From Homalodisca vitripennis (lineage: Eukaryota > Arthropoda > Insecta > Hemiptera > Cicadellidae): a stretch of 64,000 bases of DNA. The notes beneath the pieces were generated by a model. It saw nothing but the letters and a program-made list of their open reading frames with translations. It had not been told where the DNA came from and searched no databases. The position numbers and the translations under genes are program-made. The stretch covers positions 126,243,001 to 126,307,000 of the forward strand of contig NC_060211.1 of assembly GCF_021130785.1 (NCBI RefSeq). Direction: 5' to 3'. Below, one piece after another: positions 22,207 through 64,000 of the stretch; the first letter of the stretch is position 1; each line of letters opens with the position of its first letter.

Positions 22207-22409
22207 AAAGCCAGAAAGAATGAATCCTGGGTCAAAATGGTGTTTGGGAAATGTGAACATAGAGACTCCAATATAGCAAAAGATGAAGTTCTCCGCCAGG
22301 AAGTTAAGCAGCTCAAACAGTCTCTTGGTGCGTTTGCGAGAGTCCCTCGAAAGATTGTTGTAAGTGTAGTGCGCCTGACATATCCCACAGAACAGCACAG
22401 CTACCACAC
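22207..22409 (-). CDS. SLC9A6/7/9: NHE6/7/9 exon: AHYTYNNLS and LAENFIF helix
   Basis: A 203-nt exon after a TATACAG acceptor. It reads [20 protein letters not shown], then [20 protein letters not shown] and [16 protein letters not shown]. The HYTYNNLS signature and the FLAENFIF helix are hallmarks of the organellar NHE6/7/9 class. The donor at 22206 is the U12-type GTATCCTTT. Translation can run on past 22207 as an open frame, but that extension is intron and not conserved. Confidence 0.97.
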
Positions 22410-22494
22410 CTGTATAAAAAGAATCATATAGCAACGATAGATCAGAAACCTAATTTACGGTTTTTAATTTATATTAATTATTACTGTAAGGATT

Positions 22495-28010: not shown

Positions 28011-29931
28011 CAGTCAAACCTCAATATAGCGAACCTCAATATAACAAATTCCTTGGTATAACGATTTTTTTTTAAATCCCCTAGAAGTCTCCATAAGAAT
28101 CAATGCAAATTTCACCTCTACATAATGAATAAAGCATACTCACAACCTCGATATAACGAATTTATATCGACTAAAATATTGCAATAAGTGGACCTATACT
28201 TTGCTTTACAACTTGGGACATGAGAACTTCCCGAGCTAGCAATGGATGGTTGTAAAACTTTAAAAAACGAAATGAACTATTTTTTGAAAAGTGTGCGGTG
28301 ATAGTGCAAAAGTCGATGATGGTGTTTGTAATGAGTAGAAAGATAAACTTCCCGAGATAACTGGGGGATGAACCAGAAAACATCTATAATGTTTACCTGA
28401 CAAAACAAAAACATTGTCATTTAAGGGTGATAAATGCCATGGCGGAAACAGTAATAAACATTGTTTAATAGTTATGTTGAGAGCAAACTGCACAGGGACT
28501 CATAAATTAAAACCTTTAGTAATTGGAAAAGCGAAAAAACCACGTTGTTTTAAAAACGTGAATGAACTTCCTACAGAAGTAGTACATGGCGAATACAAAG
28601 GCTTCGATGAATTGTGACGCTTTCAGTGCATGGCTTCAAAGTGTTAACAAAGATATGGATAAGAAAAAGAAGAAAATTCTCATCTTCATTGATAATTGCA
28701 CGGCTCATGGAGACATTCCTAGGCTGAGTAACATTAAGGTCAAGTACCTTCCTCCAAACACAACCTCCAAAGTGCAACCGCTTGACCAGGGCATTATCTG
28801 AAGTTTTAAAGTAAATTATAGAAAAGAGGTCGTACAACAGTTCCTTAGAGACATGGAAAACCGTTTACCTACAAATATCAATGTCTTGGACGCCATGTGT
28901 ATGATCTCAAAAGCGTGGAGTAAAGTTACAGAAACTACAATTTGTAATTGTATCAAGAGGAGTGGACTCACTGTCACAACTCAGGAGAACAATTTAGACC
29001 AGCCTCCTACACAAGAAATCGACACTGTGGAGGGTTGGGAAATGGTCAAAGAAGCATTAGAGCTAGAGAAGGATGCAAAGTTCGAAAACTTTGTTACTTT
29101 TGATGACGACTTGGCTGTGTTTAGGGAGTTGACGGATGCTGACATCATTTCTTCTGTGACCTCTGGTCCGAACGAAAATGTGGCTGCCGAAGATGACGAT
29201 GACGATGACCAGATTGTGTAATGCCCGACCCGAATTTAAAAGAGGTTCGTGAAGCCATTGGTGTTCTAAAGTGTTTTTTTTTCTTAAAAAGGGTGGTTTG
29301 AGTGAAAGTGTGGTAAAATCTATAACTGAATTGGATTGCTCATTGGATATTATCAACGTCACATCACGTAAGCAGACTACTTTTACTGACTTTTTCTCTA
29401 ATAAACAGGGTGAAAACGGCATCAATAATGATGCCAGTGAAACACAAAACGTAGATTAGGCCATTTAACCTTTAACAATTCGTAATTTTCAGTTTAGTAA
29501 TACAGTACAGTACGAGTACTGTATTTTATTTTATTGTACTTTTTACTATCTGTTGCGTAAGATTTTTAAGTTTTCTTCAGGTCATGTTTGATTTTCAACT
29601 TTCTTTTAATGTGCTTTCAAAGTACATAGCTACTGTATTACAGTTTTTCTGTTTTACATACTGTATTATTAATTGAAAGAACAAAATAAAAATAAAGTTT
29701 CATTGTTCCAAATTAAATGCATTTTTATTTAGTTTTACACACTATTTAAATACAGTACAGCATACAATTTCACAACGTTTTAACATGACCAAGCAGATCG
29801 TCTGTGAACCTCGATGTAGCGAAACTGTACCTAACCTAACCGCAATATAACGAACCTCATTATAACAAAATACTCGATATAACGAACTTTCTGTTCTGTC
29901 CCTTGAGGTTTGTTATATTGAGGTTTGACTG
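28011..29931 (+). mobile_element. Tigger (pogo-type) element, 1.9 kb, 5'-deleted gene
   Basis: Terminal repeats start CAGTCAAACCTCAATATA at both ends and are flanked by TA (28009-28010 and 29932-29933). The inside carries a Tigger/CENP-B-like transposase that lost its N-terminal DNA-binding domains and the first catalytic Asp. The unit sits in the intron between exons 31326-31535 and 24068-24212. Confidence 0.94.
28300..29459 (+). pseudogene. Tigger transposase, internally deleted
   Basis: Motifs in order are FKGDKCHGG (28417), LKPLVIGKAKKPRCFKNV (28509-28562), the second catalytic block LIFIDNCTAHGD (28680-28715) and the third PPNTTSKVQPLDQGI (28753-28797). An acidic tail EDDDDDDQIV ends at 29221 and a C-terminal KQTTFTDFF lies near 29370. 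Lesions: a frameshift near 28600, TGA at 28799-28801, another break after 29221, and a deletion removing the first catalytic Asp (ADE-G in the family) and the N-terminal HTH domains. No activity expected. Confidence 0.9.
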
Positions 29932-29933
29932 TA

Positions 29934-31325
29934 CAAAACAATTTGAAAAGTGCTGATGTAAAGTCAATGACCTTTTAATATCTTAAGTAGCTTTTATTTT
30001 TTCACACAATATGACTCTTTTACATAACGTATATCCATGTAGATACATCATAGTGACTATGACTACTCTCATTTATGTGTCTCCCTCACTACGTACAATC
30101 AAGAAAAGTTTTATATACATACATTATGGATACATAATGAAACTTCTTGTTTAGTTGTAAGTACTTTTAACAGTTTGTATTGAGGAAGACAAAAGAATGT
30201 AGGTCTACTCAAAAAATCAAGGAGTGTACCCATTGTTCCACTCACATGAGTCACATCGACTGAAAATCAGGTTGCCACTACAAAAAACAGTGAAATCACC
30301 TGATTGCTACTAGCAGAGTTAAGTTTTGTAATGGGTGTGCTGTTAATTAGCCTGTCAATGACCTTATCTTTTTCTTACTAAACTTATCTATCTCAGATTA
30401 TATTATATATCATATTACTATTTCTTTTTACTTGTTTGTTTGGTTTTACCAAAATCAATATTCAAAAGGTCTTTTTTCCTTTAAACTTATTGAACACTAT
30501 TTCTTTTCAAGATCTATTGTGAGTATAGTAGTATAATTCAATGGGATTTCCAGTGTTTGGTTTCTTATCCGGAAATGAAAAATTATATAACTTACTCGTA
30601 AACTTAATGTCACACTGCCTATCCCTAAATATCTAACACTACTAATTTTTTTAATATAACCTCATATTAGCTAAGGATGTCCATATCAACCACTGAAAAT
30701 TTGTCCACCTTATAGGAATGTATACTCACTTACTGTGAATATATAAGAAATAATCTATTAGGAACAAATTCAATCGTACCACTGAGAATGTAGTAGTTAA
30801 CCTGGTGAGAATGTTAACACAAACATTGGTTGGCTGAACATTAGCGAAGCCTATCACTCAGAGACTGATATAATTTTTTTCTATGTTTGTCTGTCAGTCT
30901 AGCTGCAGGATATCTTGAGAACATATTGAACTATGCACTTGAAATTTTGGATGAAACTTCATTTATGTATAGGCATAAATGACATCAAAGTCTTCTGGTT
31001 CGCACCACCACACCAAAACATTGCTTAAACAATTAAGTAATTGAAATATTTCCAAATTATGAAAATTATATGTCAAAATATACCATATTTAGATCAAAGT
31101 CAAAATAGAGAACGTTCAAAACTAGTATTTAATCAAAACACCAGCCGCGTAAACCTAAGAACTAGGACTATATAGGCATGATCGAGTTCTAAGATGATAC
31201 ATGTTCTTCCAAGGGATGTCTCTTATCTATCCGTAGCAAAACCTTGTTATATGACACGTTGTCTGATGTACTCCTACCTTGTATAAATGTTCACATCTTA
31301 CATGCTAGGAATATAAACTACTCAC
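29934..31325. other. Intron sequence with a chromosomal repeat
   Basis: Mostly AT-rich. About 30800-31140 includes TGTTTGTCTGTCAGTCTAGC and GATATCTTGAGAACA-like sequence. Similar wording occurs at 44760-44860 and 45395-45600, so this looks like a dispersed repeat family of unknown type. Confidence 0.45.
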
Positions 31326-31535
31326 CCACTGAGAACTATGGCCACTGCGTCGTTGAGCACACTCTCACCAAACACAAGAGAATAGAGAGTGACGTCCACT
31401 CGCAGATCATTGAAGATGGCTAGGATTGTAAGAGGGTCGGTGGGAGAGATCAGGGCACCAAAATACAGACTATCCAAGTATGTGAAACTGCTCTTGAGGT
31501 GTGGAATCAGCTGGAGAAAGCCATACATCAGTGAC
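31326..31535 (-). CDS. SLC9A6/7/9: NHE6/7/9 exon: TDP and [12 protein letters not shown] catalytic helices
   Basis: A 210-nt exon encoding [36 protein letters not shown] and [16 protein letters not shown]. The TDP motif and the ND pair in the GESxLNDA helix are the ion-binding and transport residues conserved across the exchangers. They are intact. Acceptor TCCTGTAG, donor GTGAGT, phase 2 at both ends, consistent with both neighbours. Confidence 0.97.
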
Positions 31536-32334
31536 CTACAGGAAAATAATTGACATTACTCATAAAAATAACCCTCTAAAAAAAGTCAAATGTTTTGGAT
31601 TTTATAACCCTACTTTCTGACTGAAAATAAGCAAAGTATCTACCACAAGCTGGCCAGAAAATTTGGCGTTATTTATTCCTATGTCTAGATAATAGAGACT
31701 GAATAATTAAAACTATTACTTAATTTTTTTTCTTCTCCATAACATAAAATAAAACATATGTATCTATATTAAGATTCTTCAAAGCAAAGGATGGTGGTGA
31801 TTTACTACTGAAATAATATAAGCTATCACACTGTTCAGATAGCTGATCTGATTAGAGATGTTTCCCTTAGATGCAGTGTAGACTGTCACACTGGATTCTA
31901 ATGTTTTTCTCAATTTGAGAGGCTTAGGGTTTGGGATTTTGGTTGTTATAAATCTCAAGCAACCATTTATTTATGACTATAACCTACAGAAAGGAGAGCC
32001 TCATTACTATCATTTAAAATTCATTGATCAGCAATTTTCATTGATTTTAAAATCATTAAAAGTCACATCTTCCAACCAACTCCCGTCTCCACATGCCCCT
32101 ATACACAACAATCGTTACATAGCTATGGAAGCATAGGTACAAATCCCATACAACTATTCACCACCTGAGCAAGACAGGGACGGCCATGAACATCCAAACA
32201 AGCATTTATTAGACTGGCATCTTGTGAAAATCAGCAGTTTCAAACAAAGGTACAAAACCAAGATTTTTACAAACTCGCTTCATCCAGGAAACAGGCTTTA
32301 AAGTTACAAAAAGACAAATAGTTAACAATAACAC

Positions 32335-34760: not shown

Positions 34761-34958
34761 TGAATAAAACTTATGAGTCACTTTCTCTGATTACTTATGA
34801 ATCTGTACTTGGTGTTTTCCAGTCAGCAGGAAGGTTTAAAGAGACAAAGGTCACTAGCCTATGAGAAACATTATTGTGTTATTAATCATCTGGTCTACAG
34901 GTTTCAGTTTGTTGAGCATGGAGCTTTCACTAGACAGGTCTAAGCTTGGGAATTACAA

Positions 34959-36134
34959 ATGGACAAAGGTCATATCATTCCTGTCGAGTTAATCAGTGTC
35001 TCTGAAGCATTGCTGTCAACAAGTTATCTAATTACAGTAGTTCAGTTTTTATTTGGCATTTTAATGGAATTGTCTGAAAGAGAACGAATTACTCTGTTGA
35101 TGATGCGAGGATATGGCGATCGTCAAAGATCTTATCGGGAAGTTTGTAATTTGTTTAATGACACTTTCCCAGAAAGGAATCCCATAAGTGTTTCAACAAT
35201 ATCAAAAACTATTGAGCGTTTTGAAATGACAGGGAGTGTACGTAATTGGCCAAAGTCGGGTAGGATACAATCTGCAACAGATGAAGAACATGCACTAGAT
35301 GTTTTGCAAACATTTATTGAAGACCCACATACATCGCTCAGAAAAGCTGCACAGCAACATGATATGCACCCTATGTCTGTGAGTAAGATTTTGAAAATTA
35401 ATAAATACAAACCATTTAAAGTTCATTTAGTCCAACAGTTAAGTGAGGATGATTACGACAGAAGAGTTGAGTTTTGTGAACTTGTGATGCGCAAATGTGA
35501 TGACAATAGAGATTTTCTGACCAACATACTATTTTCTGATGAGGCAACTTTTTTCCTAAATGGCAATGTTAACAGGCACAATTGCCGTTACTGGGCTAGT
35601 GAAAACCCACATTGGATTACTGAGTCCCATTCACAGCAACCACAAAAACTGAACGTATGGTGTGGAATTTTAGGTAACAAAATTGTTGGACCCTTTTTCA
35701 TCAATGGAAATTTAAATGCCGAACTTTACTACAATATGCTCCAAAATGAAATAATCCCAGCTATTCAAATTGCATCAGGAGAATACTTTGATAATGTATG
35801 GTTTCAGCAGGATGGTGCTCCACCCCATTATGGGAGACAGGTAAGAGAGTATTTGGATTTAAGGTTTCCTCATAAATGGATTGGCCGAAGAGGAGAAATC
35901 GAATGGCCTCCAAGATCTCCGGATTTGTCACCAATCGATTATTTCCTATGGGGTCATTTAAAATCCAATGTTTATAGAAGAAAGCCTCATAATTTGGAAG
36001 ACCTAAGAAACAGGATTATAGAGGAGATTGCTTTGATAACTGAAGAAATGTTAGGCAACTCTGTCGAATCATTTTACACAAGATTGGCTCATTGTCAAAC
36101 CGTAGAAGGAACACAGTTCGAACAATTGCTTTGA
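34959..36134 (+). CDS. DD41D mariner-like transposase, intact
   Basis: An IS630/Tc1/mariner-superfamily transposase that cuts and pastes the surrounding element at TA. The N-terminal HTH region is ELSERERITLLMMRGYGDRQ to SVSTISKTIERF, followed by a GSVRNWPKSGR linker. Catalytic blocks are NILFSDEATFFLNG, FQQDGAPPHYGRQ and WPPRSPDLSPIDYFLWG. 41 residues separate the second and third Asp, giving DD41D. The ORF allows 391 aa, but the family-like start is the Met at 35064 (MELSERER), giving 356 aa; the extra 35 residues look like leader sequence. No stops or shifts. Confidence 0.95.
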   Translation: MDKGHIIPVELISVSEALLSTSYLITVVQFLFGILMELSERERITLLMMRGYGDRQRSYREVCNLFNDTFPERNPISVSTISKTIERFEMTGSVRNWPKSGRIQSATDEEHALDVLQTFIEDPHTSLRKAAQQHDMHPMSVSKILKINKYKPFKVHLVQQLSEDDYDRRVEFCELVMRKCDDNRDFLTNILFSDEATFFLNGNVNRHNCRYWASENPHWITESHSQQPQKLNVWCGILGNKIVGPFFINGNLNAELYYNMLQNEIIPAIQIASGEYFDNVWFQQDGAPPHYGRQVREYLDLRFPHKWIGRRGEIEWPPRSPDLSPIDYFLWGHLKSNVYRRKPHNLEDLRNRIIEEIALITEEMLGNSVESFYTRLAHCQTVEGTQFEQLL

Positions 36135-50800: not shown

Positions 50801-51447
50801 CCTAAGTAATTACAAATAATTTTTGTATAGACTGAAAATCAGTGGCAGTGACTTTTGTTACTCCTTTGTTACCACTTTGAGTATTTTTATTAACATTAAA
50901 AATATGATAAAAATAATATTATAACCTCAATTAAACTGTACCTTTTTTTGAAAAGAGAATGTTTTGGCTTTGGCTCACTAGTGGAGACTATAAAAAATTA
51001 AAGAAAATTAATAAAAACAGCTTACCTTCAATAAAAGATGTAAGCTATAACAATTGAAATGTTGGCTATAAAGTACTATCAGCTGTTTATATATATATAT
51101 ATATTATATATATAAGTAGATATGAATATGGGGTTCCTAGCGCACTTTTGGAGCCGACGAAAATCAATAGAAATTCCTGTTTAAACGACAATAAACGAAT
51201 CTGTAAAATCAAACAGTAACTCACGAATGAAAAATTACCGAATCTATAGCTGTTTGCTTATACTTTCTTGAGCTGTCAAATCAATCTATTTGAAATGTAT
51301 GCTACGAATAAACTATAAATTAAAACTTATAAACGGAAATGATGGAATTTGCTAAACAATCACTCGAGAAGTCGGGGAGAATGTGAGGTAAAACCACATT
51401 CTTTTGACGAGGTTCTTCATTTAATTTCTCCAAAATGTACTATAAAA

Positions 51448-51840
51448 TCATTCAAAGATTTTAGGCTTAAAATCGTAATCAAATTCAATATTCAAATAGT
51501 GAAAGATTATAGGTAAAATCTTCTCATAATAAACATGTGTATCGATACCTACAAACCTAATGTATTCTTTGAAAAAGGAAAAATAATTTTTTTCAACGGT
51601 TATAAGAGATAAGTAAAAATTTTTATTCTGTTTTCTAAATTCTGTAACAAATTTTGTTTTGTTTTTACCTCCATATTGCAATTTTGTAAGCAGATTATTC
51701 AAATGTGTTAGTTTATTTCGAAATTTCTTAGGTTTAGGTCTTTCGTACAAAATTAAATTACAATCTCTACAAACTAAATATTCTTTTATCAATAATTTCT
51801 CCTCTATTATAACACTTGTAACAGTTGGCATTATACTCAT
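51448..51840 (-). CDS. Hypothetical protein of the virus-like region
   Basis: Open from an ATG at 51840 (MSIMPTVTSVII); the open frame extends slightly further to 51852 without an ATG. Contains one CxxC (LVCRDCNLILY), a basic stretch RPKPKKFRNKL and an acidic/aromatic C-terminus ending FDYDFKPKIFE. A T-run followed by GTTAAATGG lies just upstream, like other gene starts in this element. No family recognised. Confidence 0.45.
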   Translation of the reverse strand: MSIMPTVTSVIIEEKLLIKEYLVCRDCNLILYERPKPKKFRNKLTHLNNLLTKLQYGGKNKTKFVTEFRKQNKNFYLSLITVEKNYFSFFKEYIRFVGIDTHVYYEKILPIIFHYLNIEFDYDFKPKIFE

Positions 51841-51959
51841 TCCATTTAACAAAAAAGATTTTTTGTTATAATGGAGATTATGGAACTAACTCTGCCGAGA
51901 TATAAATTTTTTCAACGCAAATGTTTATGTTTATATTTCAACTACCGAGATAAAAAGAA

Positions 51960-52815
51960 ATGATTTTATTTTATTATTCAACTTATTTAGGATATTTTGT
52001 CTATGATTACAAAGATTATTCCGGAAGAAATCGAGATTTTTCATCAGCGAAAGAGTATATTTTTGAAGTTTTAGAAGGAATGAAAGAGAATAATATGAAT
52101 TTACCAAATTATTTTTCTTAAATAAAAAATCTATTCTAGTAAATAGTCATCAAACAACATGAATCTCCAAAATCACTTCAGTTTCTAGCATTTAAAGAAC
52201 TTACCACAGGAAATAGTTATAAAGACTTCTTTGAATTACCTAAATATGTTAAACAAATGTTGATATTTTCCTTAAGTGAAAACGAATCCTTAAATGAAAA
52301 CGAAATTCAGAGAACTTTTAAGTACTAAAAAGTGTTCAATGCAATTTGTTACAGACAACTTAGATAGTATAAATATGTTAAATGTAATAGGAGATTTTAA
52401 ATTAAATAATAGAAAAATAAGAAAAATATTCCGATTTTTACAAAATAAACTAAAACACAACAATCTGACATTTTTCATCGCCTTTTATGCTAAATTTCAT
52501 TGTTTATTTGTTGAAATGTTGAGAAGACAATATCCATACTGGCCAAGAAATATGCATACAGCTAGTTTTTTAACAAGTCTTTGTAAACAACAAGATTTAT
52601 CAAAGGAATTTATAAGAGATCACGCTTTTGTTGTAGATTGGGATAAATTATATGGAAAAAAAACATTTACGAAACAGATATATTGTGTGTGTGTGATTCT
52701 GACGAAGAAAAGAGAAACCTTTGCCATTCAGCAATTCCATTTCGATATAATGAAAGACATACAAAATGAGTTGTTGTTAGTGTGCGTGTTTTTGCGATAT
52801 CTACTTAACTTCTAA
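51960..52815 (+). pseudogene. Hypothetical gene, frameshifted
   Basis: The second half (52294-52815) is open for 173 codons, with MKTKFRELLSTKKCSMQFVT near the start and WDKLYGKKTFTKQIYCVCV near residue 130. The first half is open in pieces (SSAKEYIFEVLEGMKENN near 52045; YKDFFELPKYVKQMLIFS near 52225) with stops between. Its position, at the end opposite the integrase, is where a polymerase or other replication gene would be expected. However, none of the polymerase motifs (YGDTDS, KxxxNSxYG) is present, so I leave it unnamed. Confidence 0.4.
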
Positions 52816-52898
52816 GAAATTGGGAATGGGGGAGAAGAAGAAAGGTATCACATATTTTATTTCAATCAACTCTAGATTTGTGACGTCGGCGTTCCACG

Positions 52899-52972
52899 AT
52901 GACCTTGGTTTGCTCACGCCGTGAACAATGACCTTGCTTTGCTCACACCAAATGACCTTGCTTTGCTCACGC
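52899..52972 (+). repeat. Three tandem copies of a ~23-bp unit
   Basis: ATGACCTTGCTTTGCTCAC recurs at about 52899 (one T/G change), 52928 and 52951, separated by a few bases. Confidence 0.85.
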
Positions 52973-53165
52973 TTGTGTGCGACAATGAAATCACGGTAAA
53001 AACACTTAATTCTGTATTACAATTGAACACTATTTTCACACAATGTTTTTATCACAGTTTTAGAATGTCTACACAAATTCACAATCTTCTTGCAATTTTC
53101 TCCTTTCTTCGAGTCCCAAATATAAAAGTAACTTATCTTAAAAGAAACACAGATCTTCACAGCAA

Positions 53166-54260
53166 TCTATATATATAAAAATGAAAACTGTTCGTGTGTA
53201 ACAGCATCACTCACAAACGGCTGGACGGATTCGCCTAATTTTTTTTTAAAATTTGTTCGTCTTGATCTGTAGAAGGTTATAGGATACTTTTTATCCCTTT
53301 CCCGATTATCAGGATTCCGCCCCACTGGTTACAGAAATACCCGTAAGAAATGCATTGCAGCAAACATATGTTATTAAGTGAAAGAGTCTTTATCAAATTT
53401 TTAATCAGCTGTTCTTTGTAAACATATATAATGCGACAAAAAATTGTTGTTATTTTTGAACAGTAACTAAGTAAACATAAATATTTTTGACGTTTCTATG
53501 TAAACAAACATTTTTTTGACATTTACAACGTGTCACAAATGTCAAATTTTTGATAAACGTGATTTGATATCTTTTTTACCAATTTCAAGAACAGTGTTAT
53601 TTTCCATCAGTAAAACGTTTAAAAAAAATAGGCAAGTATTTTTGTTTTTTTCTCATGTAAATATTCTTTGAAGAATGTTTTTCTCAACATTTTTTTTTAA
53701 AGAATTCCTTTGAGCAGTTTTTTGACGAATTTTATTGGAAAATAACATAATGCCGCCAAGAAAAAAAAAGTGCTTTAAGCCGTCACAGCGCACGTGCGAT
53801 AGCAACAAAACGAATTCGTAATAGATGTCTTCATCCCTCGCATCCCCTTAATTCCATCCGACTTGCCATTTGAATTTAAGAGACTTCAGTTCCCCGTTCG
53901 AACCTTGCGGTTCGCAATGACGATTAATAAGGCACAAGGACAATCACTTAACGTCGCAGGAATCCATCTGGAACCCTCATGTTTCTCGCACGGTCAATTA
54001 TACGTCGCTTGCTCAAGAGTCGGAAACCCGAAGAACCTTTATATTTATGCTCCAAATAATACAACTAATAACGTTGTTTACCAAAACGCATTAAAATAAA
54101 CAAAAAACTTTTATAATAGATTTTATGATATGCTACGATGTATTAGTAGAGCAATTAAATTAATTGGAAAAACGTATAATAAAATTAGTATTTCTTTTCG
54201 ATGCTTGATTGATGTAGCCCTCTCTACTGCCACGCGAGCGGAGCCGCGGGTTTAGGCTAG
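53166..54260 (+). mobile_element. Helitron inserted in the virus-like element (1,095 bp)
   Basis: Starts TCTATATATATAAAAATG after a host A and ends CTAG before a host T, the A/T insertion rule and CTRR end of Helitrons. A GC-rich hairpin, GCGAGCGGAGCCGCGGG, lies about 10 bp from the 3' end. It carries only the tail of a helicase gene. Removing it makes the flanking virus-like sequence contiguous without duplication, as expected. Confidence 0.9.
53863..54099 (+). pseudogene. Helitron PIF1-like helicase, C-terminal fragment
   Basis: Reads RFAMTINKAQGQSLNVAGI, then GQLYVACSRVGNPKNLYIYA. These are helicase motifs V (AMTINKxQGQ) and VI (LYVACSRV) of Helitron PIF1-type helicases, followed by the usual short C-terminus (NVVYQNAL). 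The Rep domain and motifs I-IV are missing, so the element depends on another copy. Confidence 0.92.
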
Positions 54261-54379
54261 TCTTCTTACATTATAAAGTCCATATCTTCTTTCTCCAACT
54301 CACAAATAAATACATTAGAATCTTCTAAATAATGATATATCTTGTTAAATTTCGTTATAAATAGAGGAGGGATCATACA

Positions 54380-55050
54380 TGGGCTAACTATGAGTGGCCA
54401 ACGCCCATGATGAAAATTTTTTCCGTGTGTGTTAAACGATTATGAATATCGAAGTTTTATCGATTAATAAAATCGATGGTTGCAATCGATATTAGAAATG
54501 TTATAGTTTCCAATGTATATTAAATAAAGTGAATATCAATATTTATTTCAAACCTTGTTGTTCAAAAACTACTTAACCGATTTTAATGAAATTTGGTACA
54601 CATATAGTAAAATACTTAATCTCTTCGACTTAACTTATCCATAAGGGTGAAATCATCCCCTATTTCTTAATATTCATAAAAAAATATAAAAAATTATCAG
54701 AAAAATCTGAAACTTCAAAAACAAGCGAGTTCAACTTAAAATTTCATGAAAATAACAAAATGTTCAAAATCTACCACCATCATCCCTTATCTTTTAAACT
54801 CTTATATCTAGAGAACTATTATTGGAGCTTTTTTGATGAAATTTGGTTATATAGGATCAGTAAAATATTAAAGTATTTTTTAAAATCACCACTTCCGGGT
54901 CCATGACCTTGAAATAGTTTTTTTCCTAATATCATCCCTATTTTTCAAAATTTTTTAATGCAATTTAAAATGTATTCTTTTATCAATGTCTTTAACAATT
55001 CTGTAAAGTTTTAAAATTGTTTCCCGATGAATAATAGTGAAAATAACGCG
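54380..55050. repeat. Probable inserted repeat, unclassified
   Basis: Contains TTAACCGATTTTAATGAAAT plus TTTGGTACAC near 54575 and a related TTTTTTGATGAAATTTGG near 54830. This wording is common in dispersed insect repeats (Helitron or RTE-like tails). No ends or gene identified. Confidence 0.35.
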
Positions 55051-55059
55051 ATTTTTACT

Positions 55060-56262
55060 GAATTTCTCTAATATCGTTCTTAATCACATCATAGGCTAAA
55101 AATTTCTCAGAAACCCACAAACCACATAACATGTTGAGTTTGTAACAGCATTTTGAAAATCCATATTGATAATTATATCGTTCTTTGAACCAGAAATATT
55201 TGTCAAAATCTTTGTTGTATCAATGACATAAATAGGTCTATTCGCTAAAAATTCTTTAGGATTGTAATACATTTCCTTATTATTACAGTAAAACTTTCTT
55301 AAAATCTTGATACATCTGATACATGATTCTGAAAAGACCTCCTGAAATGTTTAAATTTTTTGTAATTCATATCTGGATAATAAGAACCGTTCAATTTTAC
55401 TCTGATATTTTTTACATCAAACTATCAAACTTTGAAGGATTTTTTTCTTGATTATTCTGTCTATCTGTTTGAAAAACCTATGATAACGAACTTGGGATTG
55501 AAGATATTTCTATAAATATTTGTAATATCGAACGAATTAAGTTGTTCCAGAAAATACCTTTTTGTTCAATACATTGCCAATCTAGAAAAATTAAACATAA
55601 TGTTTTGACTTTTTGTAATTTCATCAATCAACCTAATTTTACTCGTGGTTTTATAATCAATCATTGGAACTCTAATAAACAAATCTGTAATTGTTATTTT
55701 TCCATCAACAGGCATAACATTTCCAGTTGCAGTCTTCAGGAATCACATCATCGTCTTCTGCTCTTGTAAAACTTAGATAAAATCCTCCTTTATAGATCGG
55801 AATAGTAACATTTTCAAAAAAATCCTAATCCAAAATGAGATAAATTTCCAGCTGCTTCAAAAACACCAAATTTAAAAATCTGATTCAAAGCCATTAGAAG
55901 TTGAGAAATAACATCACTTTTTGAATACGAAATAGTTCCTTTTAATTGTGCTTAATTGGCCACAGTTTTCGACTTCTTCTATCAATTTATTGTGTTTTCT
56001 TACTTCCAATCTTAGAAAATAAAAACGGTATAAAAATTATCGATTAATCTAACATTATCAGTTCCAAGATATGCTTGACCATCTTGACCATAGTTCCAGA
56101 AATATAAAACTGGAAGTTAGACGAGCAAAAGTTATCTCCAAAATCAATATTAAACTCAGTTCTTTTATTCGGTTCATTCAAAATGTTGTTTACTAATTGG
56201 ATAAGAAATTTTTTAAACTCCGCCTTCAATATCACTAGCATATTTTTCTGTAGGTCCGCCAT
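55060..56262 (-). pseudogene. Polinton major capsid protein (double jelly roll), decayed
   Basis: Starts at an ATG (MADLQKNMLVILKAEF) directly on the TTATTAAATGG motif. Fragments in family order are NFQFYISGT near 56100, IYKGGFYLSFTRAEDDDVIP near 55750-55795, GKITITDLFIRVPMIDY near 55650-55705, KFVIIGFQTDRQNNQEK near 55440-55490, VKLNGSYYPDMNY near 55365-55400, FLANRPIYVIDTTKILTN near 55195-55245 and NAVTNSTCYVVCGF near 55110-55150. These match the hexon-like capsid proteins of Polintons, including the GFQTxRxxN and LNxxYYP blocks. At least six frame changes. It would form the hexameric capsomers of a virion. Confidence 0.87.
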
Positions 56263-56349
56263 TTAATAAGAGAAAATTTAGAAATTTTAAAACATCATGT
56301 ATAAGAAAGATATCATTTTTTCATCGATCTAATGTACGTTTTTATAGAA

Positions 56350-56788
56350 AAGTTATAAATTAGAGTCATTTTTTAATGATCTACTTCGTCATATTCAGGA
56401 TTCTCTTCCTTAAATTTTGCGATCTCGGTCACATATTTCAATAAAAATTTGCACAGGATAGTAACCGCTATCTATAATATTGTTCCAATCAACTGTATCT
56501 TTATTTTCATCCAAAAAACTTTATACTCAAGTGTTGATAGAGGACAAAGAAAGAATAGACATAATAGACATATGATCTTTTAATTGATAATGTATATTTT
56601 CTTGAATGAACTCTGTTGATAAAGTTTGATATTTAGCAATGTTATACCAATTCAATTTGTTTACGTATAATCTCCATCATATCTTCGGATAATTCATATT
56701 TTTGAGAAATATCATCCCAATGTTCTTTTTTCAAATCTCTTTCGTGTTGCATTATAAAAAGATCGAAAGCACTGTAATGTCCCGCCAT
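56350..56788 (-). pseudogene. Small viral protein with repeat-like units, frameshifted
   Basis: Starts MAGHYSAFDLFIMQHERDLK; the first 49 codons are intact. A shifted continuation reads YQTLSTEFIQENIHYQLKD and later KDTVDWNNIIDSGYYPVQIF. The spacing of LSxxFI and W-xx-I resembles short repeat proteins found in large DNA viruses, but this is a weak resemblance. The TTTTTTCTTAATAAATAGAG motif precedes the start. Confidence 0.4.
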
Positions 56789-56792
56789 CTCT

Positions 56793-56956
56793 ATTTATTA
56801 AGAAAAAATTTCAAGTTTTTATAAATTGGCTCTTTTTTAGCGTTACATTCAGCACATTTTCCAGAAAACTCTTTTAACTCCATTGATATTTGCATAGTAT
56901 TTTATATCATTTGTTTCAGTTTTTTCCTTACATCTCACACAGTATATGAGCGCCAT
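56793..56956 (-). pseudogene. Small zinc-ribbon protein (DUF5679-like)
   Basis: ATG at 56956 on a TTATATAAATGG motif. The frame gives MALIYCVRCKEKTETNDI and then NINGVKR. After a one-base slip near 56850 the second knuckle CAECNAKK is visible, with a stop near 56795. Two CxxC knuckles ~25 residues apart, a KxxT/NG-x-KR middle and ~50 aa total match the small DUF5679 zinc ribbons of Polintons and large DNA viruses. Its 3' end overlaps the promoter-like motif of the next gene. Confidence 0.6.
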
Positions 56957-56971
56957 TTATATAAGGAAATT

Positions 56972-57891
56972 TTATCATGCATAAAACCCTACGTGAATAC
57001 CTATTTCAGTAAGATCTTCCTCGAACTTATTAATTTTTTTTTTCTAATTTTTGAAATTTGACAGCATAAGAATCATTGTATTCAACAAATTTATGACCAA
57101 TATTCTCAAAAGTTTCCGTAGCATCTAAACTAAACTTATCAAAAGACTCTTTAAATTTAGTAAGTTTTTTCATTAATTTCACCAACATCGTCTACTGATC
57201 TTTTACTTCTTTCATCAAGTTTTTCATAGACTTCTGTTGTAAAATCTTTAACATGCTGTTTATGATTCTCATAATTTTTGTTTAGTTCATTAAACATTTT
57301 AATATGATCTTCTAATTGAATCATTACAACAACATCAAATGGATTAATTCCTTTACTAACACTGCTAATTCTTTTTCCTTTAAAATCTAAGGCATTTTTA
57401 AACATTCGGATCATGTAAATCAACAATATCGATGTTTTCTGATAATTTTAGAGGTTTTAAAATTTGTTCTTTAACAACAACATCATGTTTGTCAATTACC
57501 AGGTCGAACACCGACAATTCTTTTTTTATTAGCCAAACTATAACATAATTCTTTTCAACTTTGATCGCTTCAGTAATTTTATCAGCTTTTTCGATATGAG
57601 ACATTAAATTGGTAATATTTTTTTTGCCACCATCTTCAAATTTCTTTTTTCAATGTTTTTATTTTATCAGCAACTTCACTTGAACTCATGAAATTTGCAA
57701 GTTTGTTATCATATTCTGCTTTAAAATCTTCAATCTCGGACAGCAAACATATCTGAATCTGGAAGGTTTTGTAATAAATTTTCTAACTTGTTTTCAAACT
57801 CATTTTCTCAAACTATCAAAATTGAAACTATTATCTACATTTTGAATAATTTGTGTTCCAAAATACCGTCAAAAATATTTTGTGAATCCAT
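56972..57891 (-). pseudogene. Coiled-coil structural protein, frameshifted
   Basis: ATG at 57891 (MDSQNIFDGILE), on a motif that overlaps the protease stop. Readable pieces are KNYVIVWLIKKELSVFDL and KHDVVVKEQILKPLKLSE (57398-57604), SSVSKGINPFDVVVMIQLED and NENHKQH-type charged helix followed by YEKLDERSKRSVDDVGEINE (57157-57426), then FKESFDKFSLDATETFENI near 57100. The GINPFDVV phrase followed by long charged heptads is typical of fibre- or tail-like proteins in Polintons. Role in the virion is inferred only. Confidence 0.5.
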
Positions 57892-57897
57892 ATTTAT

Positions 57898-58280
57898 TAA
57901 GCAATAATTTGGTTAACAACTTCTTTAAAATCTTTACCATTACTCAGTTCATTCAACACAAAAACACATAAATGACCACAAATTGGGGGATCTTTATAGT
58001 CTTGAATCTGAGAATCATTGTAGTAGACGCTTGATTTTTTTCAAATATTTAATCAATTCTATAGGTGGTTTGTCCTCAATTCTTCCATACGAATCAAAAT
58101 AACATGCATTCTTATCATTTTTATAATAACAAATCCAATGCGTTCCACTTCCCATAATCGAGTCTAAATTCACAATTCCACATTCAAATTTCTTAACTTT
58201 TTCAGGTAATGTATCTCTCATGAAGATTCCTCTAAAATGTTTAATATTTTTGCAGATTTCTTCCAATTCCCCGAATGTTA
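57898..58280 (-). pseudogene. Adenain-like cysteine protease (maturation protease)
   Basis: One open stretch contains NFRG-like KHFRGIFMRDTLPEKVKKF, ECGIVNLDSIMGSGTHWICY and YFDSYG; the His of GTHW and the Asp of FDSYG belong to the catalytic triad. After a shift near 58020, ICGHLCVFVLNELSNG supplies the nucleophilic Cys. The gene ends in a TAA at 57898-57900. This is the adenovirus-type C5/Ulp1-like protease that processes capsid precursors in Polintons. The N-terminus is blurred near 58280. Confidence 0.87.
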
Positions 58281-58289
58281 AAGGTTTTA

Positions 58290-58743
58290 AATTTTTTTTT
58301 CAATGTTTGATTTCACGTAATTCAAAGTTTTTTCATCTAATCCAGATCCTGTAACATCTTCCAACTCTTTATCTAACCAATTTAAAATGTTTCGAACAAT
58401 AGGAATCACATCTTTTTTAACGAGTTGGAGCAGCTTTACGAACATTAAGGAACAACATTTTTAACAACTGGAATATTTTCTCCAAAATCTAATAAATCTT
58501 TCAAAAGTCCACCATTTTTTTAAGTTCTTTCAACTGATTATAAGAAAATTCTATTCTGGTTCCTTTATTGTTTTTCTTATTGTTTTTCGAGTTTATTGTA
58601 TTGTCTATTTGTTAAAATAATCTTATCTTCACCATTTTTTAGTTGATCTATTTTAAATTGAATACTAACGGGTATTTTTTTTCTTAAAAGCGGATTTTTA
58701 TTTTTTCTTTCTGATTTTTGCTGAAATTTACATTCACCTCCAT
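58290..58743 (-). pseudogene. Small basic minor capsid/core-like protein
   Basis: ATG at 58743 (MEVNVNFSKNQKEKIKI) on the ACTATATAAATGG motif. Later pieces include NGEDKIILTNRQYNKLEK near 58625 and LEDVTGSGLDEKTLNYVKSN near 58310-58370. Lysine-rich, with a hydrophobic middle, like the small adenovirus pX/pVI-type proteins encoded beside the protease in many Polintons. Several frame breaks. Confidence 0.42.
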
Positions 58744-58759
58744 TTATATAGTTAAAATT

Positions 58760-60082
58760 TCAAGTTCTCTTCGATTCCCATTCCTAGTTTTCTCTTCATA
58801 AAACATTGCTCCAGCTGTTGGAAGCGCAACAAATTCTTTCACCTAAACTAGCATCTTTTGATATAAAATCTATCCATTGCTTTATCTTGCAAAAATTTTA
58901 TCTGCTATATGTCTGGAATTTGTGTCTCTATGTTTTGCATAAAAAATATCGTGTTCCATAGCAGCTTGATCTAATTTATTTATACCAGGATCTCCTCTTT
59001 TTAGTCTTTTTTCGAGTTTTTGTGCCAGGCCCCAGATACTGATAAGTTGGTTACGTGTAATTCAAAAAGGTAAATTGTTAATCATTCAAAAGTCGCTACC
59101 TTCAATCATTAGATGAACTTATTGCCGGCAAAACTCGTTTTAAATATTTAATTCCATCAGGTTTTTCAATCATTTCATCAAGTTTGTTCCGAAATAAAAT
59201 CTTTATTCGCTTTCTTTTCGTTCAAAAAAAATTGTTGTTTCCAGCCTTTTCTTGAGCATTAAATATAATTTATAATTCCATCGAGTTTTGTCAAATCGTC
59301 GACAATCTTATTATCATTGTTATTTTCTTTACACCTGATCCTTCGATTCGTTTTTCCCAAATTGGTTTAATTAATTTAATATATTTTTTACCTCTACTTG
59401 GACTTAGGCTTCTTAGTTAGATGGATCATTATTTTTGTAAATTGAGTCAGATTCCCATAAAATTTCTGTATACTTTTTCAAATCTTCTTCAGAATATAAA
59501 TTATCTTTTGGAGCGTCATAGTCTGTTAATAATCTCCATAAAACCTTGAGTTCCTTCATATGTTTTTTCATTAATAATGATATCATTATGTTCAAAATTC
59601 ACGGGCAAATTTCCAATCATAAAAACTTTTCTTTTTTTTATCCCAATACAAACCAAATTTATCATCTTTTTACTCTAGGAAGGAATTTTTTACCAATTTC
59701 ACCAATTATTATATCCGTTGTTCCAGGACTTATTGGTTCAACTATGGTAGAGTCTTCAATGATTCGAGGTCTAAATGGTGTTGAGATGGTAATTTTGGCA
59801 ATTCAAACTCTTCTACTTCAGATTCTGGAATCGAAATATCAGCAAAATTGTCGTACAAACTGGAACACAATTTCAATTCATCAAATTGTGATTATCGCTT
59901 AAAACGTTTTCAATTTTACCTTCAACACCTTTTTTAATTGCAGAAGTTACAGGTTGATTAATTTTTTTTGAATAAATTCTTGTTTCTTTTTCATCAATTC
60001 GAATCTGTTCTTTAAATTCTTTGATTAATTTCTTTTCGATTTGATCAAGTTTTTTCACTTCTTCAGAAGTTACGTTCACCAT
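58760..60082 (-). pseudogene. Polinton conserved protein with PLA2-like motif
   Basis: ATG at 60082 (MVNVTSEEVKKLDQIEKKLI) on TTTTTTCTAATTAAATGG. A lysine-rich N-terminal helix is followed by pieces familiar from Polintons: FEHNDIIINEKTYEGTQG near 59550-59600, LYSEEDLKKYTEILWESDS near 59440-59500 and SRGKKYIKLIKPIWEKR near 59350-59400. Near 58905-59040, in two frames, are QYLGPGT and AAMEHDIFYAKHRDT. The GPG loop plus HDxxY is the calcium loop and catalytic His-Asp of secreted-type phospholipase A2, as in parvoviral VP1 capsid N-termini. In this virus-like setting it would aid membrane passage. Broken by many stops. Confidence 0.6.
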
Positions 60083-60098
60083 TTAATTAGAAAAAATT

Positions 60099-60365
60099 TT
60101 GAATAACGTGGAACGTAAAAAACGTGAACGTGGAACGTAAAAAACGTGAACGTGGAACGTAAATAACCAGTGAAAGTGGAACGTAAGTGTGTGAACGTGG
60201 TGGAACGTAAAATTAAAAACCGTGACCGTGGAACGTAAAAAACGTGAACGGTTGGAACGTAAAACGTGAACGTGGAACAGTGAACGTGGAACGTGAAACG
60301 TGGAACGTGAACGTGGAACGTAAAAACGTGAACGTGGAAGTTTGTTTTAAAACGTGAACGCGAGA
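60099..60365. repeat. GAACGTGGAACGTAAAAAACGT minisatellite
   Basis: Irregular tandem array built from GTGAACGTGGAACGTAAAAA-type units, with variable A-runs and partial units. It fills the gap between the PLA2-like gene start and the ATPase end. Confidence 0.93.
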
Positions 60366-60409
60366 TTATTACACGTTTATATTAGAAAATTTATTCAAAT
60401 ATTTACCAT

Positions 60410-61037
60410 TTTTAGGCTTCAAAAGTTAAATTAATAGTTAAAAAATCCATAGTCTTCTTTCCAATTTTATCACATAATTCATTAAAGTGGTTAAAACTCA
60501 TATCAGATCCCACATAATTGTTGTAAATCTTTCTCGAATAGTGATCGTCTTGCTTAAAAACACACAACATATTCAAATTATTTCTAATAACTTGTTTATC
60601 AACCTTTGAAAAGCATTGGGAAAGATAGATACAAGATATGTATTTTTGTGACGAGACATTTCGAAATATTCCTTAATAACGTCCTGATTTTCCAAAAATA
60701 CAATCATCAAAACGATTTGATTGGGGTTTACATTCGCTTAAACGGAACTATGTCCTCAGAAGCATTGTAAAAATGTGATATTTCTTTGCTTAAGTTCTTC
60801 TCAATATTTTTGAATCTTTGTTGTAATTTTTTGTATGCGTTTCTTGTTCTAAAGATGTACTAAAAACATAACAAATTGGAATAAGGAATCAAACCTATTG
60901 TAGATAAAATTCAATAATAAAGTTGTTTTTCCACATCCACTTGAACCAACAATTAACAATCTGATTGGTTGATCTTTCTTATTTTCTTCAAACGTTTGAA
61001 GTTTTATCTGATCTTTTTGCTTTAAAAATTTCTCCAT
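60410..61037 (-). pseudogene. FtsK/HerA-type DNA packaging ATPase
   Basis: ATG at 61037 (MEKFLKQKDQIKLQTF). Walker A is LLIVGSSGCGKTTLLLNFIY. Downstream pieces in shifted frames are FLENQDVIKEYFEMSRHKN near 60655-60700 (segment after Walker B), then LSQ-like FPMLFKG, and a C-terminal segment ending near 60410. This is the A32-like genome-packaging motor of Polintons and NCLDV relatives. It is divergently arranged with the plus-strand gene at 61051, only 13 bp between the two ATGs. Confidence 0.88.
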
Positions 61038-61050
61038 TTAAATAGCGAAA

Positions 61051-61793
61051 ATGAAGCTGTTCAAGTTGACTTCAGAAAGCTCTAAATTAGTTTTAAACTT
61101 GGAACATCCTATTCATTTAGAGGAAGAATCAAATTATTTTATCGGTTTAAGCGGTTTTTATTCTGACAATTTTGTAATAAATATTAGTGAAAGTTCTCCT
61201 TATTGTATAGGATTTAGTGAGAAGAACTTAACAATATATTTATGGTTTAAACAAAGGATATTATACTTTCGATCAAATAAAAAATTCCCTTAAAAAATTA
61301 TCTGAAAACATTTCAAACAATCAGAAAAAATCTTTAAACTTTGACGAAAACAAGTTTGAAATGCAAAAAAATTATCTCTCTAATAAAATTCAAATAAAAT
61401 CACCAGTAAGAATAATGTTTTTCAGCAATTATTGTAGATTTGTTTAGGGTTTGTTCAAGAAAACTATTGAGCCAAATCAGGTATATTTAGGAAATAAAAC
61501 GCCAAAAATTTAGACCGTTCGATGTAATTAAAGTGCACTGCAATCTCGTTGAACCTAGTTTGAAAATCATACCGAACATTTACACAAAAGAATCTGAAAT
61601 TTTGTACACTTTTTTCCCAAATGTTGCTTATGGATCAAAAATCAGTGAAAAAACCGAATGAAATCGATTATATTCCAATTAGAAAAAATATTAAAAGAAT
61701 TCAAAAAATCGTTCTAACTATACAAGACTCTGTGGGAAATTCATTAAATAATGAGAGTAAAACAACAATATATTTAAGATTGTCGAAAGAATG
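61051..61793 (+). pseudogene. Probable Polinton minor capsid (penton-like) protein
   Basis: The first 80 codons are open: MKLFKLTSESSKLVLNLEHP, then NYFIGLSGFYSDNFVINISE. Polinton minor capsid proteins begin with this pattern (MKLLKI...YLIGLxSFYSxNxIPNI). Later fragments in other frames are ILYTFFPNVAYGSKISEKP-like sequence near 61600-61650 and KIVLTIQDSVGNSLNNES near 61705-61760, ending TTIYLRLSKE with a stop near 61791. Several frame changes. It would form capsid vertices; the role is inferred from family pattern. Confidence 0.65.
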
Positions 61794-61900
61794 ATGAATC
61801 AAGGGGGGGAACGAATCGTTCTTACCTTCAAACTTTCAAAAACAACACTATTTTCATTAATGAATCCGGACTTTATTCTCAAATAAAAATTGCTTGTTAA
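61794..61900 (+). pseudogene. BRO fragment, extra partial copy
   Basis: About 85 bases (GGGGGGAACGAATCGTT...TTTTCATTAATGAA) duplicate the segment at 62117-62200 inside the next gene. It encodes the same FINESG-type piece of a BRO-N domain. A leftover of a second bro copy between the minor capsid gene and the longer copy. Confidence 0.75.
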
Positions 61901-61917
61901 ATTTTTTTTCTATCTAA

Positions 61918-62745
61918 ATGGAGTCAGTTGTTAGACCTACTCAATAATCAACTTAGATTTGAAAACAAACATATCTTTACAATTGTGGATGATAATAATG
62001 AATTTTGGTTTAAAGCAAAAGATATTGCAGAAATATTGGGAATTAAAAAATACGATGAAAGCGATTAGAGATCACGTTTAAAGACAAATATAAAAAAAGC
62101 TTCGATAACATAGATTCAGAAGGGGGGAACGAATCGTTTTTACTTCAAACTTTCAAAAAAACACTATTTTCATTAATGAACCGGGCATATATTCTCTTTA
62201 ATACTGAAATCAAAAACGGAAGATAGCAGAAATGTTTCAAGATTGGGTTTTAGAAGAAGTTTTACCAAGTATTCGTAAATTTGGTGTGTACAAACTTTGA
62301 AAACAAGATTAAATATTTAGAGGACGAAAGTTAAACACTTGCAAATTAAAGATGAAATAAAAACGGAAATAATCGCAAAACAAAGTGTAAAAAATTGACT
62401 TAATGAAACCAGAAACTTGTTTGTAAAAAATTTTGATAAGAAAAAACACCATGTTTTTGTATTAATTAAGAAGAATCACATGTGGGAATATCCTTATTAC
62501 GTTATCAGAGCTCAAAAGAGAGAAATACCGAAAAGATTGAAAGAACATGAAATTGATTACCAGAAATGGAAATTTTATTAAGACATGGAGATCCAAAATA
62601 GTATAAATCTCTACAACCAAATGAAAGAATCTTTGAATATTTTATACAACGGAAATTCATTTTACTACAAATATGGGCAGAATCTCGACTGATTTATAGA
62701 ATATCTAAATTACACGATGAAAATGATTCTAAATTTTACTAAAAA
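61918..62745 (+). pseudogene. BRO-like gene (BRO-N domain plus viral C-terminal domain)
   Basis: ATG at 61918 on TTTTTTTTCTATCTAAATGG. The frame shifts within a few codons, then reads FTIVDDNNEFWFKAKDIAEI, the start of a BRO-N domain. After further breaks, MFQDWVLEEVLPSIRKFGVY (about 62233-62292) is its conserved end. A C-terminal part, KKHHVFVLIKKNHMWEYPYY followed by VIRAQKREIPKRLKE and NSINLYNQMKESLNILYNG, matches the domain that follows BRO-N/MSV199 regions in insect DNA viruses. BRO proteins bind nucleic acid; here the gene is dead. Confidence 0.78.
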
Positions 62746-62759
62746 CTCTCGATTTATTA

Positions 62760-63085
62760 TATTTTGTTTGTAAATGTTTAGATATAACTAGGTAACCATT
62801 GTAAAATCTTTTTTTCATATTCACAAGGCATTTCGTTTTTTATAACTTTCGCTGAACATTTTTTTAGCACAAATCTTTGCAAAAAGCATCTTTTCTATCT
62901 TTACTATACTGCCAGTTATTTTAAATTCAGAAATATTTTTAATTTCTTTACAAAAGTAACAATTTTTTTTTCTTCTAAAGTTAATTTGTCCATTTTAACG
63001 TTTAATTCCTTACAATAACAGTCTTTTCTATTCTTTTCCTTATAAAATTCTTGACACTTTGTACATTTCTTTTGAGACTCATTTT
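62760..63085 (-). pseudogene. Small zinc-finger gene, copy A
   Basis: Start region with TTTTTTTTTCTATAAAATGAG. Pieces are KCTKCQEFYKEKNRKDCYC, then MDKLTLEEKKNCYFCKEIKN and ISEF. Repeated CxxC knuckles with a K-x(3)-FY/EF spacer are the pattern of small viral zinc-finger (endonuclease-VII-adjacent) proteins. One or more shifts. Tandem paralogue of the next entry. Confidence 0.6.
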
Positions 63086-63104
63086 ATAGAAAAAAAAATT
63101 ATTA

Positions 63105-63515
63105 CACGATGAAAATGTTTTAAACTCTCGAATTATGATATTTGGTTTGTAAATGTTTAGCATAAACTAGGTAAACCATTGAAGAACTCTTCCACATTCG
63201 CAATGAGTCGGTTTTATTTTGACTTTCTCGGAAAATTTCTTCTAGCACAATCCTTACAAAAAGCTTGTTTTTTATCTTTACTATAATGCCAGTTGTGAAA
63301 TTCTGAAATATTCTTAATTTCTTTACAAATACAACATTCTTTCTCTTCTAAAGTTAATTTTTCTATTTTTTTCGTATAATTCTCTCTCATATTTACTACG
63401 GACAATCCTTACACATAGACCCTAATCCTTCTTTTTTATTCCTATTTTTATAAAAAACTTCAAAATCTTTTAAATTCTTGACACTTTGTACATTTCTTTT
63501 GAGACTCCAATTTAT
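63105..63515 (-). pseudogene. Small zinc-finger gene, copy B
   Basis: Longest intact part is 63214-63405: NYTKKIEKLTLEEKECCICK, EIKNISEFHNWHYSKDKKQA and FCKDCARRNFPRKSK. It shares LTLEEK-x-C-x-x-CKEIKNISEF with copy A. Its 3' flank (AAACTCTCGA...TTGTAAATGTTTAG) is also duplicated beside copy A, so the whole unit was duplicated. The start motif is TTTTTTCTATATAAATTGG, with one extra T at the ATG. Confidence 0.62.
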
Positions 63516-63524
63516 ATAGAAAAA

Positions 63525-64000
63525 ATTATAGCTTTGACTTTCTCCAATTCATATTCATAAACTTTCCGGTTATTTCTTCATTATTTAAATCTTTTATACT
63601 ATAGTTACAGGATCTGTGTTATTAATTTGATAAATCACAAAGATTTCTCTTGACCAATTGTTCTTATATTTGGTGAAAATGTTTGTTTTTTACTACAATT
63701 CTTACATGATCATTGACTTTAAATTTAGTCTTCATGTGAATTTTCTGGTGGATACTATACTTGAAAACGGTCTCTAATAACTCCTTTTCTGCATCCCCCC
63801 CCTTATCTACGTCTTTGGGCTTCATTTTGATTGTGCTGTGAACTGTATCGTTATAATTGTTTACGATTTTTTGAAGGAATATCGATCCATTTAAAGTTTT
63901 TTTATTAATCTCAAAAATTACTTTCATTCTCTCATTTTGAGTTCTGTTATATCTCTCTACATACTTGATTTCTCTTCGTTTTTCAGTATGATAAATCTTA
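63525..64000 (-). pseudogene. Retroviral-type integrase of the Polinton, C-terminal part
   Basis: Open from the window edge to 63664: KIYHTEKRREIKYVERYNRT and NERMKVIFEINKKT, then VNNYNDTVHSTIKMKPKDV and KFKVNDHVRI. The Glu of VERYNRT is the third catalytic residue of the rve fold. After the stop at 63664 a shifted frame continues with YKNNWSREIFVIYQINNTDP, the chromodomain-like C-terminus, to about 63525. The first two catalytic Asp lie beyond the edge. The gene inserts the element and generates its 6-bp target duplications. Confidence 0.9.

What the first reader, a model, noticed from the sequence alone, without database searches (positions are those of the whole stretch)
51115..64000. Endogenous Polinton/adintovirus-like element upstream of the exchanger exons
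Integrase, packaging ATPase, adenain-like protease, major and minor capsid genes and accessory BRO and zinc-finger genes occur together. This is a virion-forming gene set fixed in an animal genome. Accessory content (bro copies, a PLA2-like protein, duplicated zinc fingers) differs from textbook Polintons and may define an undescribed lineage.
Basis: partly seen in the sequence, partly recalled or inferred. Interest (0 to 1): 0.8.

Follow-up and report, generated by a model that had tools for sequence, protein, structure and literature searches.

The report
Maverick virus remnant in leafhopper DNA
Part of a virus-like Maverick (Polinton) element with capsid, protease and integrase genes sits in insect DNA, probably from a sharpshooter leafhopper; it is a further member of a known kind, and its many broken reading frames look more like assembly errors than like old decay.

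Summary
The gene set is largely real. From about 55,058 to the window edge lies a Maverick/Polinton-type element: rve integrase, Bro-N/DUF3627 gene, P-loop ATPase, PLA2 domain, adenain-like protease, DUF5679 zinc ribbon, and a double-jelly-roll capsid protein collinear with all 391 residues of a relative. Named relatives come from sharpshooters (Cuerna arida, Homalodisca vitripennis) and a record labelled Baumannia. A minor capsid gene was not confirmed. The left limit is not supported: a Helitron tail lies at 53,803-54,096, and three ORF pieces left of it matched nothing. PLA2 and Bro-N are already reported in Mavericks/Polintons. The integrase lacks the C-terminal chromodomain given as an adintovirus feature. 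Against three relatives, 27 frameshifts, 22 of them insertions, go with no stop in 608 codons, while transposase frames of 433 and 396 codons are open elsewhere: patchy assembly error explains this better than decay. Polymerase, terminal repeats and the right end are outside the window; the genome search did not complete. New member of a known kind, moderate to low interest.

The parts
63529..63999 (-). Integrase, C-terminal part (runs off the window edge); ends without a chromodomain, in more than one frame
63122..63549 (-). Zinc-finger gene copy A; fingers seen by eye
   Evidence: direct repeats, alignment, frames; no Pfam family above cut-off
62743..63121 (-). Zinc-finger gene copy B, diverged tandem copy of A
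61901..62578 (+). BRO gene: Bro-N start at 61901-62065 and DUF3627 at 62399-62578, in more than one frame
   Evidence: (1.5e-7 and 1.7e-8)
61804..61880 (+). Repeat of 62122-62196; read by eye as a partial second copy of the later part of Bro-N
   Evidence: repeats D9 and D10; frames
61042..61791 (+). Coding-like pieces of unknown kind; my candidate for a minor capsid gene, not confirmed
   Evidence: nothing above cut-off
60415..61037 (-). P-loop ATPase, probably packaging; Walker A in 60852-61037
   Evidence: (Pox_A32 7.7e-5, just below cut-off); later pieces matched nothing credible
60105..60339 (.). Minisatellite, 22-base unit, about 10 copies
59416..60082 (-). Coding-like pieces between ATPase and PLA2, position like ORF2 of Spodoptera Mavericks
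   Evidence: frames; no match above cut-off
58885..59061 (-). Parvovirus-type phospholipase A2 domain with HD pair
   Evidence: PF08398 2.8e-4, below cut-off; P0040
57872..58221 (-). Adenain-like cysteine protease core; more than one frame; conserved H, D, Q and C present
   Evidence: fold of relative P0002
57033..57842 (-). Coding-like pieces after the protease, position like ORF6 of Spodoptera Mavericks
   Evidence: frames; no match above cut-off
56858..56950 (-). DUF5679 zinc ribbon
   Evidence: 2e-6, 28.3 bits, cut-off 27
56530..56794 (-). Coding-like pieces before the capsid gene
   Evidence: frames; no Pfam family
55058..56262 (-). Major capsid protein, double jelly roll, collinear with P0044 residues 1-391, many frameshifts

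Best explanation
An endogenous Maverick/Polinton-type virus integrated in leafhopper nuclear DNA, seen in part. Inferred working by analogy with the family: the integrase inserts the linear DNA; a protein-primed polymerase (outside the window, not seen) copies it; the ATPase packs it into a double-jelly-roll capsid that the adenain-like protease matures; the PLA2 domain helps escape from the endosome, as in parvoviruses; Bro-N, zinc-finger and DUF5679 proteins probably act on DNA. Shown here are domains and their order; every step of function is inferred. The window's copy is probably younger than its broken frames suggest, because the damage is mostly insertions with hardly any stops (my probability for assembly error as the main cause: about 0.65).
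For: Domains. Protease fold: the model of P0002 (mean pLDDT 86.7) matches adenain of Terrapene box turtle adintovirus (TM 0.77 by query, E 4.5e-5) and, at E 0.004-0.015, SseL, pS273R, adenain and Ulp1 in the PDB. Host: Na+/H+ exchanger 6-like exon (E 5.7e-20) and transposases in the same window; relatives named for Homalodisca vitripennis, on a 1.2 Mb contig, and Cuerna arida. Similar gene lengths in Spodoptera Mavericks: ORF7 391/404 aa, PRO 120/133 aa, a PLA2-bearing CAP (Table 2 of PMC5803895). Frameshift statistics.
Against: No polymerase, terminal inverted repeat, target-site duplication or second end seen. The ATPase is only a generic P-loop by score. The model of the capsid relative failed (mean pLDDT 38.4). 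Integration is read from one contig, which could be a chimeric join. Seven scans of viral contigs gave no relative, the eighth only P-loop matches; genome contigs, which is prokaryotic, gave none.
Confidence: 0.85

Rival explanations
1. An old, truly decayed Maverick relic.
For: Genes lie in several frames; partial Bro-N repeat and diverged tandem zinc-finger copies; the piggyBac gene at 3065-5129 also seems split between two frames, so not all other coding sequence is clean. Homopolymers near frameshifts (8 of 27 against 4.6 expected) do not decide.
Against: 0 stops in 608 aligned codons, where 3.0, 6.1 and 12.1 are expected at 2, 4 and 8 substitutions per indel; 113 of 114 in-frame codons identical to P0002; 22 of 27 frameshifts are insertions. 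With harsher penalties: 1 stop with 23 frameshifts (2.6 to 10.2 expected), 0 with 16 (1.8 to 7.1 expected). The true ratio of substitutions to indels is recalled as high in insects, not measured here; at 2 per indel the lack of stops is weak evidence.
Confidence: 0.3
2. A member of Adintoviridae in the strict sense.
For: Protease fold nearest by named viral hit to an adintovirus adenain; shared core genes.
Against: No C-terminal chromodomain on the window's integrase nor on 6 of 6 full-length close relatives, which PMC11071296 gives as a feature of the group (passage). That passage defines the group by PolB and hexon, which could not be tested; on rechecking this I raised the figure from 0.15 to 0.2.
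Confidence: 0.2
3. A non-integrated virus joined to host DNA by mis-assembly.
For: Patchy sequence quality; a hybrid long-read assembly is suspected.
Against: The integrase relative of H. vitripennis lies on a 1.2 Mb contig; Helitron and exchanger exons share the window.
Confidence: 0.07
4. Unrelated fragments brought together by chance.
For: Short open pieces only.
Against: Capsid match collinear over its whole length, and ATPase, PLA2, protease, DUF5679 and capsid on one strand in a row.
Confidence: 0.01

Closest known systems
Spodoptera frugiperda Mavericks 1 and 2 (PMC5803895)
   Same: ATP, INT, PRO, a PLA2-bearing CAP and an ORF7 of 391/404 aa, the size of the capsid protein here (that ORF7 is the capsid protein is my inference from size). 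If the order of its Table 2 is gene order, ATP, CAP, PRO and ORF7 follow one another as here; its figure was not seen
   Different: Their INT carries a chromodomain and in Table 2 stands between ORF2 and CAP; here INT lies beyond a BRO gene and zinc-finger genes and has no chromodomain. No sequence comparison was made: their sequences were not at hand
Adintoviruses
   Same: Integrase, adenain, double-jelly-roll capsid; protease fold
   Different: No chromodomain on the integrase; polymerase not seen
Proteins P0044 (Cuerna arida), P0047 (Homalodisca vitripennis), P0002 (record named Baumannia)
   Same: 326 of 369, 112 of 125 and 113 of 114 in-frame codons identical to the window
   Different: They are predicted in single open frames; P0047 covers only the end of the integrase

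Membership tests
Maverick/Polinton | retrovirus-type (rve) integrase | tested here: met
   the window holds the C-terminal part only, rve itself is seen in relatives
Maverick/Polinton | adenain/Ulp1-like protease | tested here: met
   Peptidase_C5 on the window's own piece is below cut-off (0.022)
Maverick/Polinton | double-jelly-roll major capsid protein | tested here: met
   the family match is to the relatives
Maverick/Polinton | A32-type packaging ATPase | tested here: inconclusive
   Pox_A32 just below cut-off, other P-loop families as high
Maverick/Polinton | minor capsid protein | tested here: inconclusive
   nothing above cut-off for two pieces of the candidate gene
Maverick/Polinton | protein-primed PolB | not testable with these tools
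   outside the window; the genome search did not answer in 14 tries
Maverick/Polinton | terminal inverted repeats and target-site duplication | not testable with these tools
   right end lies outside the window
Adintovirus (as described in PMC11071296) | integrase with C-terminal chromodomain (stated as a feature beside the definition) | tested here: not met
Adintovirus (as described in PMC11071296) | PolB with N-terminal OTU-like domain | not testable with these tools
   outside the window
Adintovirus (as described in PMC11071296) | hexon recognisable by BLASTp against adintovirus hexons | not tested
   no adintovirus hexon sequence at hand

The most novel reading that the evidence does not exclude
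A leafhopper Maverick lineage, recently or still active, whose integrase has no chromodomain but an N-terminal DUF5679-like zinc ribbon akin to the free DUF5679 protein of the same element, which would change how the element chooses insertion sites.
Probability: 0.3. Interest if true: 0.45.

Novelty: new member of a known kind. Interest (0 to 1): 0.3.

Why it matters
It documents a Maverick in what is probably sharpshooter DNA (these insects carry Xylella, PMC8496328) and warns that insect virus-like DNA, perhaps binned with a bacterial symbiont, can look more decayed than it is. An integrase with a zinc ribbon and no chromodomain, if it holds across the lineage, would make target-site choice of Mavericks testable.

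Tried and rejected
The five viral-contig hits of the ATPase piece (L001-L005) match around the P-loop only. I read the ORFs of three of the five (L001-L003); by eye the hit there is a clamp-loader-like protein of phage contigs. L004 and L005 were not read. All five were set aside. Seven other scans of viral contigs and one of genome contigs gave no relative. tblastn of the integrase piece against phages: none. The integrase piece found only unrelated chains at E above 3 in the PDB, the PLA2 piece none. By sequence the protease piece matches pS273R at 0.0046, but serum albumin follows at 0.05 and adenain only at 0.56 and above. NCBIfam gave nothing for the pieces but P-loop noise. The model of the capsid relative had mean pLDDT 38 and was not searched. 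Homopolymer spectra by region and homopolymers near frameshifts (8 of 27 against 4.6 expected) do not decide between error and decay. A shared repeat motif between the ORF at 52294-52812 and the piece at 56530-56676 was suspected by eye and not supported. Pam16, PHAT, SCAF11 and like matches are below their cut-offs and were ignored. Rows left out: the protease alignment used 26 of the 42 proteins found; the integrase alignment 9 of 14 (P0047, P0053, P0055, P0057 and P0058 left out as short; P0047 was scanned).
Full report
What was checked. The finding names a Polinton/adintovirus-like element at 51,115-64,000. Open frames there are short, so I scanned pieces one by one. Pfam on ten pieces gave Bro-N (1.5e-7), DUF3627 (1.7e-8), PLA2 (2.8e-4, below cut-off), a P-loop with Pox_A32 at 7.7e-5 (below cut-off by 0.1 bit; Ras slightly higher) and Peptidase_C5 at 0.022 (below cut-off). 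Of ten further pieces only the Helitron piece scored (Herpes_Helicase 1.1e-5, below cut-off); ten more gave nothing above cut-off. A DUF5679 zinc ribbon at 56,858-56,950 scores 28.3 bits against a cut-off of 27.

Relatives. The protease piece finds 42 proteins at E<=1e-3 among 70 candidates. The best, P0002, is named for Candidatus Baumannia cicadellinicola. The capsid piece finds 2 of 6 candidates: P0044 of Cuerna arida and P0045, both double jelly roll. The integrase piece finds 14 of 28 candidates, among them P0047 of Homalodisca vitripennis. tblastn places P0044 along 56,262-55,058 from residue 1 to 391, in several frames.

Protease. In 26 aligned relatives (of 42) H28 and D43 are invariant, and Q73 and C81 are at 90% or more. 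All four lie in the window's two pieces. That these are the catalytic residues of adenain is recalled. The model of P0002 (mean pLDDT 86.7) has as its best named viral match the adenain of Terrapene box turtle adintovirus (the first hit, F2Y212, has no name there). In the PDB its best matches are SseL, pS273R, adenain and Ulp1 at E 0.004-0.015, with none at E<=0.001.

Integrase. All 6 full-length close relatives (P0046, P0048-P0052) carry rve, no chromodomain, and an N-terminal stretch resembling DUF5679. That stretch is below the Pfam cut-off in all six (18.2-24.1 bits against 27). P0054, P0056 and P0059 carry the chromodomain, the last just under its cut-off. The window's integrase stops at the same place as the close relatives. 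Its N-terminus is outside the window, so the zinc ribbon is shown for relatives only. [quoted passage not shown] PMC5803895 reports chromodomains in Spodoptera Maverick integrases and says that they are not present in earlier described Maverick integrases (passage). Lack of a chromodomain is therefore not new among Mavericks.

Limits of the element. A Helitron helicase tail at 53,803-54,096 matches Helraiser at 1e-15. Three ORF pieces at 51.4-52.8 kb match no Pfam family; one of them, 52,294-52,812, also matches nothing in viral contigs or the PDB. I place the supported left limit at the capsid gene's end, 55,058; the true end is unknown, and an element interrupted by the Helitron is not excluded.

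Host and origin. Exchanger exons at 31,325-31,555 (NHE6, E 5.7e-20) and 22,069-22,449, with several transposases, show animal-type nuclear DNA. PMC8496328 describes a Nanopore plus Illumina MaSuRCA assembly of H. vitripennis. No polishing step is named in its assembly section. A Baumannia bin there aligns to the reference over only 66.40% (sections 6, 7 and 14). Its main text does not mention Maverick or Polinton. That the window comes from that or a like bin is my inference; no call names the source.

Broken frames. Against P0002, P0044 and P0047 the window shows 551 of 608 in-frame codons identical, no stops and 27 frameshifts, 22 of them insertions. At harsher penalties there are 23 frameshifts with 1 stop, and 16 with none. 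Random substitutions would make stops at 0.056 each, so 3.0, 6.1 and 12.1 stops are expected at 2, 4 and 8 substitutions per indel. Transposase frames of 433 and 396 codons are open elsewhere in the window, though the first belongs to a gene that seems split once. I read this as patchy assembly error with probability about 0.65. Insertion excess is, from memory, not typical of Nanopore reads, which speaks against that detail of the origin.

Novelty. PLA2 is known in Spodoptera Mavericks (passages and section 11 part 1 of PMC5803895) and is named in a figure key of PMC3671162 (passage). Bro-N is said to occur in some polintons (passage of PMC12721341). A search for Polinton with leafhopper gave one paper, unrelated by its title. 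One for at least two of sharpshooter, Maverick, Polinton and Homalodisca gave 500, of which 20 were listed and none by title describes such an element. Only the library's open papers were searched. PMC11071296 was seen in passages, PMC11071308 in passages, PMC9302190 in part 1 of 2 of its text. The adintovirus paper itself was not held.

Noticed in passing
   Followed up: yes
3065-5129 (-): piggyBac-type transposase (PF13843 1e-66 on 3065-4363); by eye its start continues in another frame
   Followed up: partly
34944-36131 (+): Open transposase frame of 396 codons with DDE_3 just below cut-off and DUF4817
   Followed up: partly
12780-13253 (-), 15745-16092 (-), 28802-29218 (+): Mos1-type mariner HTH, reverse transcriptase and DDE_1 pieces
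   Followed up: no
22069-22449 (-) and 31325-31555 (-): Na+/H+ exchanger exons, the second closest to NHE6
   Followed up: partly
60105-60339: Minisatellite with 22-base unit inside the element, between ATPase and the next gene
   Followed up: no
51451-51885 (-) and 52294-52812 (+): ORFs of 145 and 173 codons with no Pfam match; the second also none in viral contigs or the PDB
   Followed up: partly
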